Origin: Streptococcus parasanguinis
GTDB taxonomy: Bacteria; Bacillota; Bacilli; Lactobacillales; Streptococcaceae
Direction of reading: 5' to 3'
Assembly (NCBI RefSeq): GCF_031582885.1
Contig: NZ_CP133988.1
Location: forward strand, 1,123,501-1,187,500
Length of the DNA: 64,000 bases
The notes under the pieces were generated by a model, which saw nothing but the letters and a program-made list of their open reading frames with translations, did no database searches and was not told where the DNA came from. Position 1 is the stretch's first letter. Each line of letters begins with the position of its first letter. Shown here one piece after another: positions 43,990 through 49,318 of this stretch. The position numbers and the translations under genes are program-made.

Positions 43990-44268
43990 ATGGATAAACT
44001 CCAAATAAAATCCAGCCCAATGGATGCGCAAGCGGCTATTGGTGAGTTGACTGGTGTTGATGTATCACAAAATGAGAATAAACAAGTAGAATTTAGTTAT
44101 TCTGCTGGTATAGCAGGTATGGAGAAGGGAAAAGAGGTAAATAATCACTTACTTCAAGCTTTGGGTAAATTTAGTGAAGCTGTTCTGATTCAAGCTAATA
44201 AATTTCCTCAAATTGCCGCTGTGCTTGAAAAACGTGATGTAGAACAGGCTCAAATATGGGGAAGCTAA
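43990..44268 (+). CDS. Lap1-like small helical partner of LXG toxin (DUF3130/TIGR04197 type)
   Basis: 92 residues, WXG100-like in size and predicted as a helical hairpin with no signal peptide (MDKLQIKSSPMDAQAAIGEL to FPQIAAVLEKRDVEQAQIWGS). It resembles the TIGR04197/DUF3130 type VII secretion family, whose members bind the LXG domain of the adjacent toxin and guide it to the EssC secretion channel. It is the first gene of the LXG operon, with GAGGGTGA upstream; the next gene begins two bases after its stop. Confidence 0.8.
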   Translation: MDKLQIKSSPMDAQAAIGELTGVDVSQNENKQVEFSYSAGIAGMEKGKEVNNHLLQALGKFSEAVLIQANKFPQIAAVLEKRDVEQAQIWGS

Positions 44269-44270
44269 CC

Positions 44271-44618
44271 ATGATGGAGGATGTTAATAAAAATAAGCGA
44301 GATAAACTATTCCAGGAAATTGTGAAAACAGAGCGACAAGAAGATCTTATTTTTAATTTAAGTCGTGAGTATCAACAAAGTTTAGATGAATTTTTAGAAG
44401 ATCTTTCGATGATCACACGAGAAGCAGAAGAAAAGTTGTCTATTTCATCTCAAAATATCTTATTTTTTCAAGAAAAGAATGAAATGGATTTAATTGCAAG
44501 AAATTATGTGGTTAGACAGATGGATGGTGTCAGTGAAGAGTTTCGGAATGTTTTAAAAAACTTAGACATTCAGAGAGAAAAATTGATAAGAGAAAGGAAT
44601 AGTTTGCCGTGGGAGTGA
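44271..44618 (+). CDS. Lap2-like helical partner of LXG toxin (DUF3958 type)
   Basis: 115-residue, highly charged, predicted all-alpha protein (NKRDKLFQEIVKTERQEDL, FLEDLSMITREAEEKLS), matching the second small gene of LXG operons, known as Lap2/DUF3958. Such proteins pair with Lap1 on the LXG helix bundle and are probably needed for export or stability of the toxin. The start at 44271 has GGGGA upstream, while an in-frame ATG at 44256 overlaps the Lap1-like gene. The LXG gene overlaps its end by 10 bases (GTG within the last codons). Confidence 0.75.
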   Translation: MMEDVNKNKRDKLFQEIVKTERQEDLIFNLSREYQQSLDEFLEDLSMITREAEEKLSISSQNILFFQEKNEMDLIARNYVVRQMDGVSEEFRNVLKNLDIQREKLIRERNSLPWE

Positions 44619-46213
44619 GATACAGTTCATCAGAATCTGCTGCTTTGATTGAAACTATGAGCAGTAATATTCAAATTGCTACTCAGATTACAGAAAAACT
44701 TACTAGTGGAAGTGATCATTTAATTGCAGAAATCGAAGCAGGTAGACTTCAAGGTGCTGCATATGAGGCAGGGAAAAATTTATTTGGGAATATTATTATC
44801 CCATGTATCCAAAAATTACAAGAAGCGATCGACGATATTCAGATTGAATTAAATTCATACAAAAACGCAGATGCAGTTGTATCAAAATATGGAGAATTAG
44901 ATTTAGATGATTTGAAGACACAAAAACAGAGTTGGGAAAAACAGCTTTCAAAGTATCAAGATCTAATCAGAAAGAATGAGGATTTTTTCAATCGTGTTGG
45001 AGCATTTCTTACCGCAAATCTGGATCAAAATTTATCAGAAAATAGAGTTCTTCATGAACTGGCTGATAAAACACGGATGCAAATCAAAGATGTTGAAGAA
45101 AAAATTGAAAAATTAGAGTGGTTTGTTGAGCAAGTCAATCAGTATTTTTCAGACAGTCTTGAAATTCTTAATTTAGCGATTGAAGGAGCAGGACAACTAA
45201 GTCAAATTATAGTTGATAGCAACGGAAATTACTATGCGGATGGTGTCGACATGACTTGGTTTGACAAAATGAAACAAACAAAAGTTGTTTCCTACGCTAA
45301 AAGAGACTATCAGGATGCCTTAACAAGGACTTTAAATCAAGCGTCGAGAGATATGTTATTATCAGATGATGGTGATACCTATTATCGGGAAGAGTTAAAA
45401 AAACGCTTAAAAGGACATGATCGGTCACAGTGGAAAAAAATAATTGATGATTATAACCATACTCTAAAAATTGACAATGAAGGGAATTTAATTGAAATTT
45501 TTGATAATAGTGCTTATAAAGATCGACATTATCAAAAAGATGATAACTTTTCTGTTCTAAAAAATGGGAAGTATGATAGTGCTTCTACGAGATTGATCAA
45601 CGAAAAATATCAAGAACTTCTTCAAGAAAATTTTGAAGCTAATTCTGCTGAATTTTGGGGTGGAGTTAGTCAGATGTTATCAGGTTTACTACTTGACTTT
45701 GCTAGCGTAGCAGCAGAAACTGGAGGTTTAGCTTTAGCTCCTGAGACAGGTGGGGCAAGCTTTATTGCTGGAACAACTGCAGCAGAGGTTGCTTTAGATG
45801 CAGGCAACGCACTCATATTTAGTGGGGTAGTATCTGTAGGATCCGCTATTAGTAAAACAGGTAGCGCAAACGCTGAAATTCAAGTTAATTATTCTAGCAA
45901 CTACGATAGCTGGCAGGCAAATAAACCGACGAGTAAGACTTTTGGGAAAAAGGTTTCTGGACGAGTTAAAGGTAAAAAAGTCGATAATATTCGAGTTGAT
46001 GCGGAGCCAGATAGTGGGAAAATCCAAGTTCAATCGGGAAGTGGGAAATCGGGTTATGGCCTCGACATAGATATCGAGGTTTCAAGGATTTCAAGTAGGC
46101 AGGATATTGTAGACTGGGTAAGCAAACATTCTGAACTAAAAGGACTTGGAAAAGGAGCTAAAGAAGAAGTTATCAAAAATATGTGGAAAGCTTTTAAATA
46201 CTTAACGCAATAA
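44609..46213 (+). CDS. LXG-domain polymorphic toxin, type VII secretion substrate
   Basis: 534 residues. An N-terminal LXG helical domain (about 1-200, beginning YSSSESAALIETMSSNIQIA, with the LXG-like RLQGAAYEAG near 47) is the export signal for the Esx/type VII route. A middle linker (200-345) leads to an Ala/Gly-rich hydrophobic region with a TG-rich pretoxin-like stretch (about 347-417). The last 117 residues (NYSSNYDSWQANKPTSKTFG..., ending KNMWKAFKYLTQ) are the probable toxic domain, whose family I do not recognise. The start is GTG at 44609, overlapping the Lap2-like stop, with AAAGGAATAG upstream. Five likely immunity genes follow. Confidence 0.88.
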   Translation: MGVRYSSSESAALIETMSSNIQIATQITEKLTSGSDHLIAEIEAGRLQGAAYEAGKNLFGNIIIPCIQKLQEAIDDIQIELNSYKNADAVVSKYGELDLDDLKTQKQSWEKQLSKYQDLIRKNEDFFNRVGAFLTANLDQNLSENRVLHELADKTRMQIKDVEEKIEKLEWFVEQVNQYFSDSLEILNLAIEGAGQLSQIIVDSNGNYYADGVDMTWFDKMKQTKVVSYAKRDYQDALTRTLNQASRDMLLSDDGDTYYREELKKRLKGHDRSQWKKIIDDYNHTLKIDNEGNLIEIFDNSAYKDRHYQKDDNFSVLKNGKYDSASTRLINEKYQELLQENFEANSAEFWGGVSQMLSGLLLDFASVAAETGGLALAPETGGASFIAGTTAAEVALDAGNALIFSGVVSVGSAISKTGSANAEIQVNYSSNYDSWQANKPTSKTFGKKVSGRVKGKKVDNIRVDAEPDSGKIQVQSGSGKSGYGLDIDIEVSRISSRQDIVDWVSKHSELKGLGKGAKEEVIKNMWKAFKYLTQ

Positions 46214-46223
46214 GGAGTGAACA

Positions 46224-46832
46224 ATGAAATTATATTTAAAAGGCGATTATACAAAAAGAGTACCTTATGGTTATTTAGAACTAGCTGGCAAAATGTGGTT
46301 TCCAGAAGAAAAGCAAGTATCTTACTCAAATGCAGGAGACAATGATGCATTACAAGAAGATTTTTCTGTAAATTTATCCCTGAGGAAAGGCACTGCCGAT
46401 AAGAGATGGTCTAGTGTCCCCCTAAAGGAAGGGGTACGAAGACTCTTTTCACATCTTGACGAATGTATTGAGATAGAGTTTGAAAATGCATTCGCTACGG
46501 ATTATAATGAAAAGGGAGACTATCTCCGTATTTTAACCAGCCATCTAGAAGTTTTAACAGTTGATAAACGCGCCATGTACATTATGGCGCTTGAGATTGC
46601 AAAGGTGATTGACGGGCAAATTAGCGAGGATAATAAGAAGACATGGCTAACAGTCGAGGAGTTTAGGAAAAAGCACGAGGCTATTCTATCTCTAACTTTT
46701 GAAGAAGCAAATGAACGAAGTTTGACTGAAATTCAAATGATGGATGTGGTAGATGACCCTCTTTGGGAGGAAGAAGCCACTCGTCGAAAAGAATATATAC
46801 TAGCACATGGAGGCGATATCTCAGATTTATGA
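46224..46832 (+). CDS. Putative immunity protein, tandem copy 1
   Basis: 202 residues, no signal peptide or membrane helix, so probably cytosolic. First of five tandem paralogs that share an N-terminal KLYxKGDYTK motif with a KMWF box, a variable middle, and a strongly conserved block from LTVDKRAxYIMA through IDGQISED to DPLWEE. Position straight after the toxin (10 bases, AAGGAGTG ribosome-binding site) is that of the cognate immunity gene. This copy lacks the acidic C-terminal tail of copies 2-4 and ends GGDISDL. The family is not one I can name. Confidence 0.7.
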   Translation: MKLYLKGDYTKRVPYGYLELAGKMWFPEEKQVSYSNAGDNDALQEDFSVNLSLRKGTADKRWSSVPLKEGVRRLFSHLDECIEIEFENAFATDYNEKGDYLRILTSHLEVLTVDKRAMYIMALEIAKVIDGQISEDNKKTWLTVEEFRKKHEAILSLTFEEANERSLTEIQMMDVVDDPLWEEEATRRKEYILAHGGDISDL

Positions 46833-47458
46833 GACTATACATCAAAAGTGATTTTACGAAAAAAATAGACTTCACAACTAGAGAGCTTGTTTGGAAGATG
46901 TGGTTTAAGGAACGGAATGGCAAGAAAATAAGTTTCTCCAATGTTGGTGATGATGCTATGTTACAGGATGATTTTTACTTTGGTGTTCGGTTACACAAAT
47001 GGTCTTCAGTTGACGAAAGATGGGATAAGGCTCCTTTTATAATTCCTAGTAATCCTTGGTTGTCTTTGGAATATGAGAGTATAACACTTGAATTTGAAAA
47101 AACTTTCATTACAGAGTGGAGAGAACGTGGAGATTATCTACGTATCGCAACATCTCATATAGATGTTTTAACTGTAGACAAACGTGCTTTATACATTATG
47201 GCAGCTGAAGTAGCATCTGCCATTGATGGTCAGATTAGCGAGGACGGCAAGCAAAATTGGCTAAGTGTAGAAGAATTTAAGGAATATCACAAGGATGTTC
47301 TTTCACTGACTTATGATGAAGCTGTTGAAATCAGTTTGGAAGAATTAAAGACAATGGTACCGGTAAGAGATCCTCTATGGGAAGAGGAGGAACGGCTTCG
47401 AGAAGAATACACCAAAATCCATGGTGAACGTGTTTATGACGATGAGGAAGACGATTGA
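46829..47458 (+). CDS. Putative immunity protein, tandem copy 2
   Basis: 209-residue paralog of copy 1. The ATG at 46829 overlaps the stop of copy 1 in ATGA; an in-frame ATG at 46763 lies inside copy 1. GGAGG (46809-46813) is rather distant, so start is by termination-reinitiation. The middle region (KERNGKKISFSNVGDDAML) is close to copy 5 in its KMWFKER box. The C-terminus is acidic (YDDEEDD), and its codons GATGAGGAAGACGAT contain the GAGG that serves copy 3. Probably arose by duplication, and could protect against variant toxins from other strains. Confidence 0.7.
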   Translation: MRLYIKSDFTKKIDFTTRELVWKMWFKERNGKKISFSNVGDDAMLQDDFYFGVRLHKWSSVDERWDKAPFIIPSNPWLSLEYESITLEFEKTFITEWRERGDYLRIATSHIDVLTVDKRALYIMAAEVASAIDGQISEDGKQNWLSVEEFKEYHKDVLSLTYDEAVEISLEELKTMVPVRDPLWEEEERLREEYTKIHGERVYDDEEDD

Positions 47459-48087
47459 AATTATATATCAAAGGCGATTACACCAAAGAAATTCCGTTTG
47501 ATTATTTAGAACTAGCGAAGAGAATGTGGTTCGAAAGCTATCAAGGAGAAGGTATATCTCTCTCCTATTCTGGTTTTCTTCAAATCAGAGATGGGAATGA
47601 TATAGCCATTCATCTAAAACTAAATAAACAGGATTATGACGAACGTTGGTTGTGTATTCCGATACAAGAAGGGATAAAATATCGTTTTTATTCACAAATT
47701 GATGAAGACCTAAATTTGGAATTTGAGAATGCTTATGTAACAGATTTTCGAGAAAATGGAGACTGTTTGCGTATCGCTTCTACCCACCTTGAACTGCTCA
47801 CTCTTGATAAAAGAGCGTTCTATATCATGGCCATTGAGATTGCCACAATCTTTAATGGACAAATCAGTGAAGACGATAAGAAAACATGGCTAACAGTCGA
47901 GGAATTCAAGGAAAAGCACCAAGATATCTTATCTCTAACTTTTGATGAAGCAAATGAGATGAGTTTGGAAGAAATTCAGACGATTGACGCTATTGATGAT
48001 CCCATCTGGGAAGAATTGGATAGGAAGCGTGAAGAGTACATCAAAATCCATGGCGAACGTGTTTATGACGATGAGGAAGAAGATTGA
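47455..48087 (+). CDS. Putative immunity protein, tandem copy 3
   Basis: 210 residues. Starts at TTG in a TTGA overlap with the copy 2 stop, with GAGG 7 bases upstream inside the coding end of copy 2. The N-terminus KLYIKGDYTKEIPFDYLELAKRMWF matches copy 4 closely. The conserved block reads LTLDKRAFYIMAIEIATIFNGQISED, where Phe-Asn replaces Ile-Asp. The acidic tail YDDEEED is almost identical at DNA level to that of copy 2 and again supplies the next ribosome-binding site. An unusual start codon and no ATG nearby. Confidence 0.7.
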   Translation: MKLYIKGDYTKEIPFDYLELAKRMWFESYQGEGISLSYSGFLQIRDGNDIAIHLKLNKQDYDERWLCIPIQEGIKYRFYSQIDEDLNLEFENAYVTDFRENGDCLRIASTHLELLTLDKRAFYIMAIEIATIFNGQISEDDKKTWLTVEEFKEKHQDILSLTFDEANEMSLEEIQTIDAIDDPIWEELDRKREEYIKIHGERVYDDEEED

Positions 48088-48713
48088 GAATTTATATTAA
48101 AGGTGACTATACAAAAGAAATCCCGTTTGATTACTTAAAACTAGCAAATAGAATGTGGTTTGGGGAAAAAGATGGAATAGAACATGACTTGTCGTATGCA
48201 GGGTATCTAGATTTACCAATCGAGAAACTTTCTATCCACTTAAAATTAAATAAGTGGATGCATGATAATAGATGGAGTAATGTTCAGATTAAGGAAGGGA
48301 TAAAATATGATTTTTTATCCCATAAATATGAAGATATAGAGCTAGACTACGAAGATGCTATGATGTCGGACTTTCGTGAGAAAGGTGAATGTTTAAGAAT
48401 CGCTACTAAGCACCTTGAACTCCTCACCGTTGATAAACGTGCTTTCTATATTATGGCCATTGAAATTGCGACTGCTATTGATGGTCAGATTAGCGAAGAT
48501 GATAAAGAGAGCTGGTTAAGTGTGGAGGAATTTAAAAACCGGTATGAAGATATCCTATCGATGAGTTATGAACAGGCTAATGAGATGAGTCTGGAGGAAA
48601 TTCCGTTTATGGATGATGTGAGAGACCCGGTTTGGGCAGAAGATGACCGCAGAAATGAAGAATACATCCGAATCCATGGAGAAGTGGAGTTGGATGACGA
48701 GGACGACGAGTGA
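48084..48713 (+). CDS. Putative immunity protein, tandem copy 4
   Basis: 209 residues, TTG start in a TTGA overlap with copy 3, GAGGA upstream in the tail codons. The N-terminus RIYIKGDYTKEIPFDYLKLANRMWF is nearest to copy 3, while the last about 15 codons match copy 5 almost base for base, so the gene looks mosaic. Its acidic end ELDDEDDE carries GACGAGGACGACGAG, giving GAGG before the GTG of copy 5. Confidence 0.7.
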   Translation: MRIYIKGDYTKEIPFDYLKLANRMWFGEKDGIEHDLSYAGYLDLPIEKLSIHLKLNKWMHDNRWSNVQIKEGIKYDFLSHKYEDIELDYEDAMMSDFREKGECLRIATKHLELLTVDKRAFYIMAIEIATAIDGQISEDDKESWLSVEEFKNRYEDILSMSYEQANEMSLEEIPFMDDVRDPVWAEDDRRNEEYIRIHGEVELDDEDDE

Positions 48714-49318
48714 AACTATATCTTAAAGGTAACTACGAAACTAACATCTATCAAGCCTGTATGGAATATCCTTGGAAAATGTGGTTCAAGGAACGTAAGG
48801 GAGTGCAGGTTGAGTTTTCTTATGCACGTGATGATGACTTCTATTTTAGTGTTAGTTTGGATAAATTTTCTTCAAATGATGAGCGTTGGGGAATGGCTGA
48901 TTTTAGAGTAGGCAACGATCCTTGGGCGACTTTTAAGTATGAAGATATAAATTTAAATTTTGTAGATTCCTATGAAAGTGATGGACGAGAAAAAGGAAAC
49001 TATCTACGAATCATCACGACTCATAAAGATATTCTAACGGTTGATAAGCGAGCTCTTTATATCATGGCAATTGAGGTAGCCTCTGCCATTGGCGGTCACA
49101 TTAGCGAAGATGATAAGGAAACATGGCTGAGCATTGAAGAATTTAAAACAAAACATGCAGATTTGTTGCATTTAACCTACAATGAAGCGGTTGACATTAG
49201 CTTGAAAGAGATAGAAGCAATGAAAGCTGTTGATGAGCCACTCTGGGAAGAATTGGATCGAAAGCGTGAAGAATACATCCGAATCCATGGAGAAGTGGAG
49301 TTGGTTGACGACGAATGA
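48710..49318 (+). CDS. Putative immunity protein, tandem copy 5 (last)
   Basis: 202 residues, GTG start in a GTGA overlap with copy 4. The N-terminus diverges (KLYLKGNYETNIYQACMEY), the KMWFKER box resembles copy 2, and the core has GGHISED in place of DGQISED. The tail is shortened to ELVDDE, encoded GTTGACGACGAA without GAGG, which fits with no gene following. A terminator comes 20 bases later. The five genes are visibly more A/T-rich than the aldo/keto reductase gene beyond them. Confidence 0.7.
   Translation: MKLYLKGNYETNIYQACMEYPWKMWFKERKGVQVEFSYARDDDFYFSVSLDKFSSNDERWGMADFRVGNDPWATFKYEDINLNFVDSYESDGREKGNYLRIITTHKDILTVDKRALYIMAIEVASAIGGHISEDDKETWLSIEEFKTKHADLLHLTYNEAVDISLKEIEAMKAVDEPLWEELDRKREEYIRIHGEVELVDDE

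What the first reader, a model, noticed from the sequence alone, without database searches (positions are those of the whole stretch)
45860..46213. Unrecognised C-terminal toxin domain of the LXG protein
Seen: after a hydrophobic Ala/Gly region (about 347-417) the last 117 residues are polar and basic, with VDAEPDSGK, a Ser/Gly-rich SGSGKSGYG and a KNMWKAFKYL end. I cannot match this to a known toxin fold. The partner paralogs have no signal peptide, so a cytoplasmic target is likely (inference), unlike the wall-targeted TelC/TipC type.
Basis: partly seen in the sequence, partly recalled or inferred. Interest (0 to 1): 0.6.

Follow-up and report, generated by a model that had tools for sequence, protein, structure and literature searches.

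The report
New toxin domain with matching antidote
The last ~107 residues of this streptococcal secreted protein are an interchangeable bacterial toxin 'warhead' of a family that no protein-family or structure library used here recognises; it travels through Gram-positive bacteria together with its own antidote gene and probably poisons rival bacteria from inside by attacking nucleic acids.

Summary
In detail: codons 418-534 of the LXG ORF (44609-46213) carry the stated motifs. The module is better bounded at about residue 428 (window ~45.9 kb). It is a real, mobile toxin cassette. In relatives, DNA identity switches sharply near 45.9 kb in both directions, and the C-terminal domain moves as one block with the next gene, paralog 1. 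Homologues sit on other carriers (other LXG proteins, a PT-TG protein, a plasmid-encoded secreted protein) or as toxin-only ORFs. Almost all have a relative of paralog 1 immediately downstream. On the same LXG carrier type, or a related carrier, other strains have EndoU or colicin-E3-type toxins.

Neither the toxin domain nor the immunity family matches Pfam, NCBIfam or PDB sequences. The AlphaFold models (pLDDT 84 and 87) have no convincing solved-structure match. The predicted toxin is a four-stranded sheet followed by two helices, with a conserved R-x-D-x-E-P / Q-x-Q-x-G-x-G-K cluster on one hairpin face and no conserved His.

Best reading: a T7SSb-delivered, cytoplasm-acting, basic toxin, most likely a metal-independent RNase, neutralised by the acidic cytosolic paralog 1. 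The toxin-immunity assignment is strong (~0.93). The RNase step is inference (~0.5). It is a new toxin/immunity family of a known kind.

The parts
43990..44268 (+). Small ORF (92 aa) upstream; probable LXG-associated targeting partner (Lap-like), by position and size only
   Evidence: ORF; no Pfam/NCBIfam hit. [quoted passage not shown]
44256..44618 (+). Small ORF (120 aa); probable second Lap-like targeting partner
   Evidence: no credible family hit; position only.
44609..45889 (+). Carrier part of the LXG protein: LXG domain (residues 1 to ~300) and hydrophobic Ala/Gly region (~345-423)
   Evidence: LXG E=0.012 in the window protein (below cut-off); 4.5e-5 and 8.3e-6 in streptococcal relatives and 1e-6 to 1.3e-50 in carriers of the same toxin domain elsewhere. 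This part is exchanged independently of the toxin.
45890..46213 (+). Toxin domain (residues 428-534, plus stop): four strands and two helices, conserved T441 S442, K457, R462-V-D464-x-E466-P467, Q473-x-Q475, G477-x-G479-K480
   Evidence: Alignments A1-A3; AlphaFold2 model mean pLDDT 83.7, pTM 0.77; breakpoint at its 5' edge.
46224..46832 (+). Paralog 1: cognate immunity protein (202 aa, pI 4.8, no signal peptide)
   Evidence: Moves with the toxin domain as one block; first downstream gene co-varies with the toxin (Mantel rho 0.63 against 0.27 for the second gene); model pLDDT 87.2.
46829..47458 (+). Paralog 2 of the immunity family (about 50% identical to paralog 1; the listed ORF begins upstream at 46763)
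47455..48087 (+). Paralog 3 of the immunity family (54% to paralog 1)
48084..48713 (+). Paralog 4 of the immunity family (53% to paralog 1)
48710..49318 (+). Paralog 5 of the immunity family (46% to paralog 1)

Best explanation
Residues ~428-534 are the toxin module of a type VIIb-secreted LXG polymorphic toxin. The LXG and hydrophobic parts serve export and entry. The C-terminal module, once in the cytoplasm of a non-immune neighbour, acts there, most likely as a small basic metal-independent endoribonuclease (tRNA or rRNA). The catalytic and substrate surface would be the conserved R462/D464/E466 - Q473/Q475 - G-x-G-K480 patch on the second beta-hairpin, with T441/S442 nearby. The producer is protected by the acidic, cytosolic paralog 1, which binds the basic module. 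Paralogs 2-5 are probably an immunity bank against variant toxins of the same family. Shown here by computation: cassette structure, mobility, conservation, pairing with paralog 1, lack of any known family, predicted fold. Inferred: toxicity itself, cytoplasmic site, RNase chemistry, direct binding.
For: Cassette exchange: relatives L003, L005, L006 keep toxin and paralog 1 at ~83-100% DNA identity in nearly all 60-bp windows (a few 70-78%) while the carrier falls to 43-80%. L008 and L012 keep the carrier (~90-100%) while toxin and paralog fall to ~53-82%. The switch is at ~45.9 kb both ways; dN and dS show the same. Homologues on unrelated carriers: PT-TG protein L054 (PT-TG 4.7e-13) and LXG L055 (1.3e-50), a secreted 1386-aa protein on a Latilactobacillus curvatus plasmid; toxin-only ORFs of 83-98 aa. 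Other toxins on the same or related scaffolds: LXG plus EndoU (L076, 1.4e-23), PT-TG-type scaffold plus colicin-E3 type (L081). Immunity-family gene directly downstream in nearly all loci, including distant ones; co-variation. Charges: toxin pI 9.6, paralogs 4.4-4.8. EssC of T7SSb in the same genome, 1733 bits. YxiD, an LXG tRNase with an occluding immunity protein that contacts the basic active site through an acidic loop, is a characterised precedent (PMC12700104).
Against: No experiment and no family or fold match identifies the chemistry. There is no conserved histidine, unlike many RNase toxins, and the predicted strand-then-helix order is not the BECR order. Part of the glycine-rich loop of the model has low confidence (residues 52-54 below pLDDT 50). 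A conserved acidic pair could instead mean a metal-dependent nuclease or a non-nuclease target. The streptococcal LXG domain itself scores below Pfam's cut-off.
Confidence: 0.52

Rival explanations
1. Same cassette and same immunity, but the enzyme is a DNase, or a metal-dependent nuclease using the conserved D464/E466 pair.
For: Invariant acidic D-x-E with basic R/K and Gln in a small basic domain; immunity acidic.
Against: No HNH, PD-(D/E)XK or GIY-YIG signature or profile hit; the fold has no match among solved nucleases; acidic residues on one strand of a meander are not a standard two-metal arrangement (inference).
Confidence: 0.17
2. Cytoplasmic toxin that does not cut nucleic acid (nucleotide or NAD(P) hydrolase, modifying enzyme, or binder of an essential protein).
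For: NAD(P)-consuming toxins are known among streptococcal T7SSb effectors: S. parasanguinis Tac1 on an LXG carrier (PMC12356396) and the S. suis MSE-ExTs (PMC12558993). The glycine-rich G-x-G-K loop could bind a nucleotide.
Against: Only ~95 residues; no sequence or structure match to any solved NADase or cyclase toxin in the PDB sets searched.
Confidence: 0.22
3. Membrane-depolarising toxin: the hydrophobic Ala/Gly region does the killing, as in TelE, TspA or EsxX, and the polar tail is only an accessory.
For: Residues ~345-423 are Gly/Ala-rich and hydrophobic; glycine-zipper LXG toxins exist in S. gallolyticus and S. aureus (PMC10434224, PMC12744356; titles and abstracts).
Against: The hydrophobic part exchanges with the carrier, not with the toxin/immunity block; toxin-only ORFs and carriers L055/L056 lack it; the paralogs show no membrane segment.
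Confidence: 0.05
4. Acts outside the membrane, like TelC.
For: LXG delivery to the outside is compatible with wall targets.
Against: Immunity proteins without signal peptide; basic small domain; no match to TelC in PDB sequence searches (that TelC is in the PDB is from own knowledge).
Confidence: 0.04

Closest known systems
LXG polymorphic toxins of the type VIIb secretion system (PF04740; TelA/B/C, YxiD, Tac1)
   Same: Same layout: two small upstream ORFs, LXG carrier, exchangeable C-terminal toxin, immunity gene directly downstream; EssC in the genome.
   Different: C-terminal domain and immunity family match none of the described toxins or immunity proteins in the libraries searched.
YxiD-CTD/YxxD (Ntox50, BECR-fold tRNase on an LXG carrier; PMC12700104)
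   Same: Small basic C-terminal toxin on an LXG carrier, acidic immunity surface, predicted action in the cytoplasm.
   Different: No HxVP, no conserved His, no PF15542 hit; predicted sheet precedes the helices instead of following one.
Colicin E3-type toxin domain (PF09000)
   Same: A relative of the PT-TG-type carrier bearing this domain carries a PF09000 toxin instead (L054 against L081).
   Different: hhalign of the two domains: probability 0.2%.
TelE, TspA and EsxX membrane-depolarising LXG toxins
   Same: A Gly/Ala-rich hydrophobic stretch is present before the tail.
   Different: It belongs to the carrier by recombination evidence and the immunity proteins are soluble.

Membership tests
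LXG polymorphic toxin (T7SSb) | N-terminal LXG domain (PF04740) | tested here: inconclusive
   Window protein E=0.012, 15.9 bits, below the 26.5 cut-off. Streptococcal relatives 23.9 and 26.3 bits; carriers of the same toxin elsewhere 29-173 bits.
LXG polymorphic toxin (T7SSb) | Variable C-terminal toxin exchanged between carriers | tested here: met
   Identity switch at ~45.9 kb both ways; EndoU on the same LXG type (L076).
LXG polymorphic toxin (T7SSb) | Adjacent cognate immunity gene | tested here: met
   Homologue of paralog 1 directly downstream in nearly all loci; co-variation. Binding not testable here.
LXG polymorphic toxin (T7SSb) | T7SSb machinery in the genome | tested here: met
   EssC, TIGR03928, 1733 bits against cut-off 778.
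LXG polymorphic toxin (T7SSb) | Upstream Lap targeting proteins | tested here: inconclusive
   Two ORFs of the right size and place, no family hit.
BECR-fold RNase toxins | N-terminal helix followed by a four-stranded meander | tested here: not met
   Model order is four strands, then two helices; no BECR structure at a significant E-value.
Ntox50 / YxiD | Conserved His residues and HxVP | tested here: not met
   No conserved His in 23 members; no PF15542 hit.
Colicin E3 cytotoxic RNase (PF09000) | Profile similarity | tested here: not met
   No hmmscan hit; hhalign 0.2%.
Glycine-zipper pore-forming LXG toxins | Hydrophobic zipper belongs to the exchangeable toxin module | tested here: not met
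   The hydrophobic region exchanges with the carrier and is absent from toxin-only ORFs.
RNase toxin (any fold) | RNA cleavage | not testable with these tools
   Needs expression and RNA analysis.

The most novel reading that the evidence does not exclude
A structurally new, histidine-free RNase (or other) toxin fold built on an R-x-D-x-E-P / Q-x-Q-x-G-x-G-K hairpin, with its own new immunity fold, spread through Bacillota by cassette exchange across LXG, PT-TG and plasmid-borne secreted carriers and unrecorded in current family libraries.
Probability: 0.4. Interest if true: 0.62.

Novelty: new variant of a known kind. Interest (0 to 1): 0.5.

Why it matters
It defines a toxin/immunity family pair missing from Pfam, NCBIfam and the PDB (the toxin also from PHROGs), carried by commensal oral streptococci and by other families of Bacillota. 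It supplies module borders, candidate catalytic residues and the cognate immunity gene, so function can be tested directly. The five-gene immunity array next to one toxin offers a natural set for testing how specific immunity is and how immunity banks form.

Tried and rejected
Pfam, NCBIfam, PADLOC and PHROGs scans: only chance-level hits (Lactococcin G-beta, ROB beta-lactamase and the like). PDB sequence profiles: designed Ig folds and fatty-acid binding protein at E 0.04-1, rejected. Foldseek in PDB: NF1 Sec-PH, WNK1 autoinhibitory domain, Prp8 RNase-H-like, EVH1, a CDI complex (5t87), all E>=0.17 with TM<0.5; the CDI and AP2 resemblances were considered and dropped. Foldseek in BFVD: mostly uncharacterised phage proteins at E>=0.014, not informative. 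Immunity-protein fold: no match. Viral contigs and phage records: no homologue. I looked for Ntox48 because its published signature (R, [RK], Q, Q; PMC3482391) resembles this one, but used the wrong accession (PF15541 is Ntox4), so that call is no evidence; the hmmscan of all members would have been expected to show an Ntox48 hit if Pfam holds that family. Colicin E3 resemblance tested by hhalign (against a single sequence) and rejected. L046 (E 1.7e-5) looks like a false positive (long non-toxin repeat protein) and was left out.

Full report
What is there. The ORF at 44609-46213 (+) encodes a 534-residue protein with a GTG start. Residues 418-534 are exactly the stated coordinates and contain the stated motifs. 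The tail is basic (residues 428-534: pI 9.6, about +7) after a Gly/Ala-rich hydrophobic stretch (~345-423), while the rest of the protein is acidic. Two small ORFs lie directly upstream. Five tandem paralogs of 202-210 aa, 46-62% identical, follow. The window lies in a 2.14-Mb streptococcal genome. Relatives with names are S. parasanguinis (92%), S. oralis and S. cristatus. The genome encodes an EssC of T7SSb about 1 Mb away.

The domain is a family. The tail has homologues in 23 of 285 genomes of the genus, in further families of the order, class and phylum, and on a Latilactobacillus curvatus plasmid. Across 23 members (other members 37-94% identical to the window) the invariant residues are R462, V463, D464, E466, P467, Q475 and G479, with T441, S442, K457 and G477 nearly invariant (window protein numbering). 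Conservation begins at about residue 428. Between the window and relatives sharing this toxin type, dN/dS is 0.10-0.33, so the sequence is under constraint.

It is an exchangeable cassette, and paralog 1 is part of it. In L003, L005 and L006 the carrier (LXG plus hydrophobic region) is only 43-80% identical to the window in 60-bp windows, but from about 45.9 kb through the toxin and paralog 1 identity is mostly 83-100%, with a few windows at 70-78%. In L008 and L012 the carrier is mostly 90-100% and the toxin/paralog block falls to about 53-82%. dN and dS say the same. The hydrophobic region goes with the carrier. Toxin-only ORFs of 83-98 aa are seen in L047, L049 and L052, with an immunity-like gene downstream. 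The same domain is found behind a strong LXG domain (L055, 1.3e-50), behind a PT-TG pre-toxin (L054, 4.7e-13), and at the end of a 1386-aa secreted plasmid protein. Conversely, the same streptococcal LXG type carries an EndoU nuclease in L076 (1.4e-23), and a relative of the L054 scaffold carries a colicin-E3-type toxin (L081). This is the pattern of polymorphic toxins.

Immunity. A homologue of the five paralogs is the next gene in nearly every locus, down to distant Bacillota. Within streptococci, distances between toxins correlate with distances between the first downstream paralogs (Mantel rho 0.63, p 0.001) much better than with those of the second paralog (0.27, p 0.017). All five are acidic (pI 4.4-4.8), without a signal peptide or membrane segment. 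Paralog 1 is therefore the most likely cognate immunity protein; the others are most simply read as protection against variants (inference). The immunity family also has no library match, and its confident model (pLDDT 87) has no PDB match.

Structure and mechanism. The toxin model (pLDDT 83.7, pTM 0.77) has four strands (16-26, 29-39, 44-49, 59-63) and two C-terminal helices (70-79, 88-106). Foldseek gave no significant PDB or BFVD relative. A small, basic, swappable domain with an acidic cytosolic immunity protein and a polar conserved sheet face most resembles metal-independent RNase toxins such as YxiD (PMC12700104), but it lacks the histidines, the HxVP motif and the strand/helix order of that class. 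It should not be filed as BECR, Ntox50 or ColE3. I put RNase at about 0.5, another cytoplasmic activity at 0.22, DNase at 0.17, and a membrane or wall target below 0.1.

Novelty. The delivery system and the toxin-immunity logic are well known. The toxin domain and its immunity family appear not to be in current libraries, and five literature searches found no description; absence from an open-access library is not proof that none exists. I rate it a new variant of a known kind.

Noticed in passing
L022 / L032 (S. oralis DD24), around the toxin 3' end: The toxin reading frame is broken (484-aa ORF plus an overlapping 71-aa ORF) while the downstream immunity gene is intact: a disarmed but still immune strain.
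   Followed up: partly
window 46224-49318: Five tandem immunity paralogs with overlapping start/stop codons; 300-nt repeats 60-70% identical with ~611-629 nt spacing. A likely substrate for recombination and array growth or shrinkage; array length differs between relatives.
   Followed up: partly
L033 (Latilactobacillus curvatus plasmid NZ_CP031005.1), 62-4733: A 1386-aa secreted protein with DUF5776/SH3-like repeats and a coiled-coil region ends in the same toxin domain and is followed by an immunity homologue: a possible Sec-secreted, plasmid-borne use of the domain, without an LXG domain.
   Followed up: partly
L077, L078, L079 C-termini: The same streptococcal LXG carrier type ends in further different C-terminal domains that I did not identify.
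   Followed up: no
window ~44000-49300: The LXG/immunity island has lower GC (0.33-0.41) than its neighbours (up to 0.51) and lies between an ABC transporter pair and an aldo/keto reductase-like gene; a 307-aa ORF also follows the array in L029.
   Followed up: no
L050 / L051 (G375): 56-residue C-terminal remnants of the toxin domain downstream of full LXG toxins, suggesting displaced old toxin tips.
   Followed up: no
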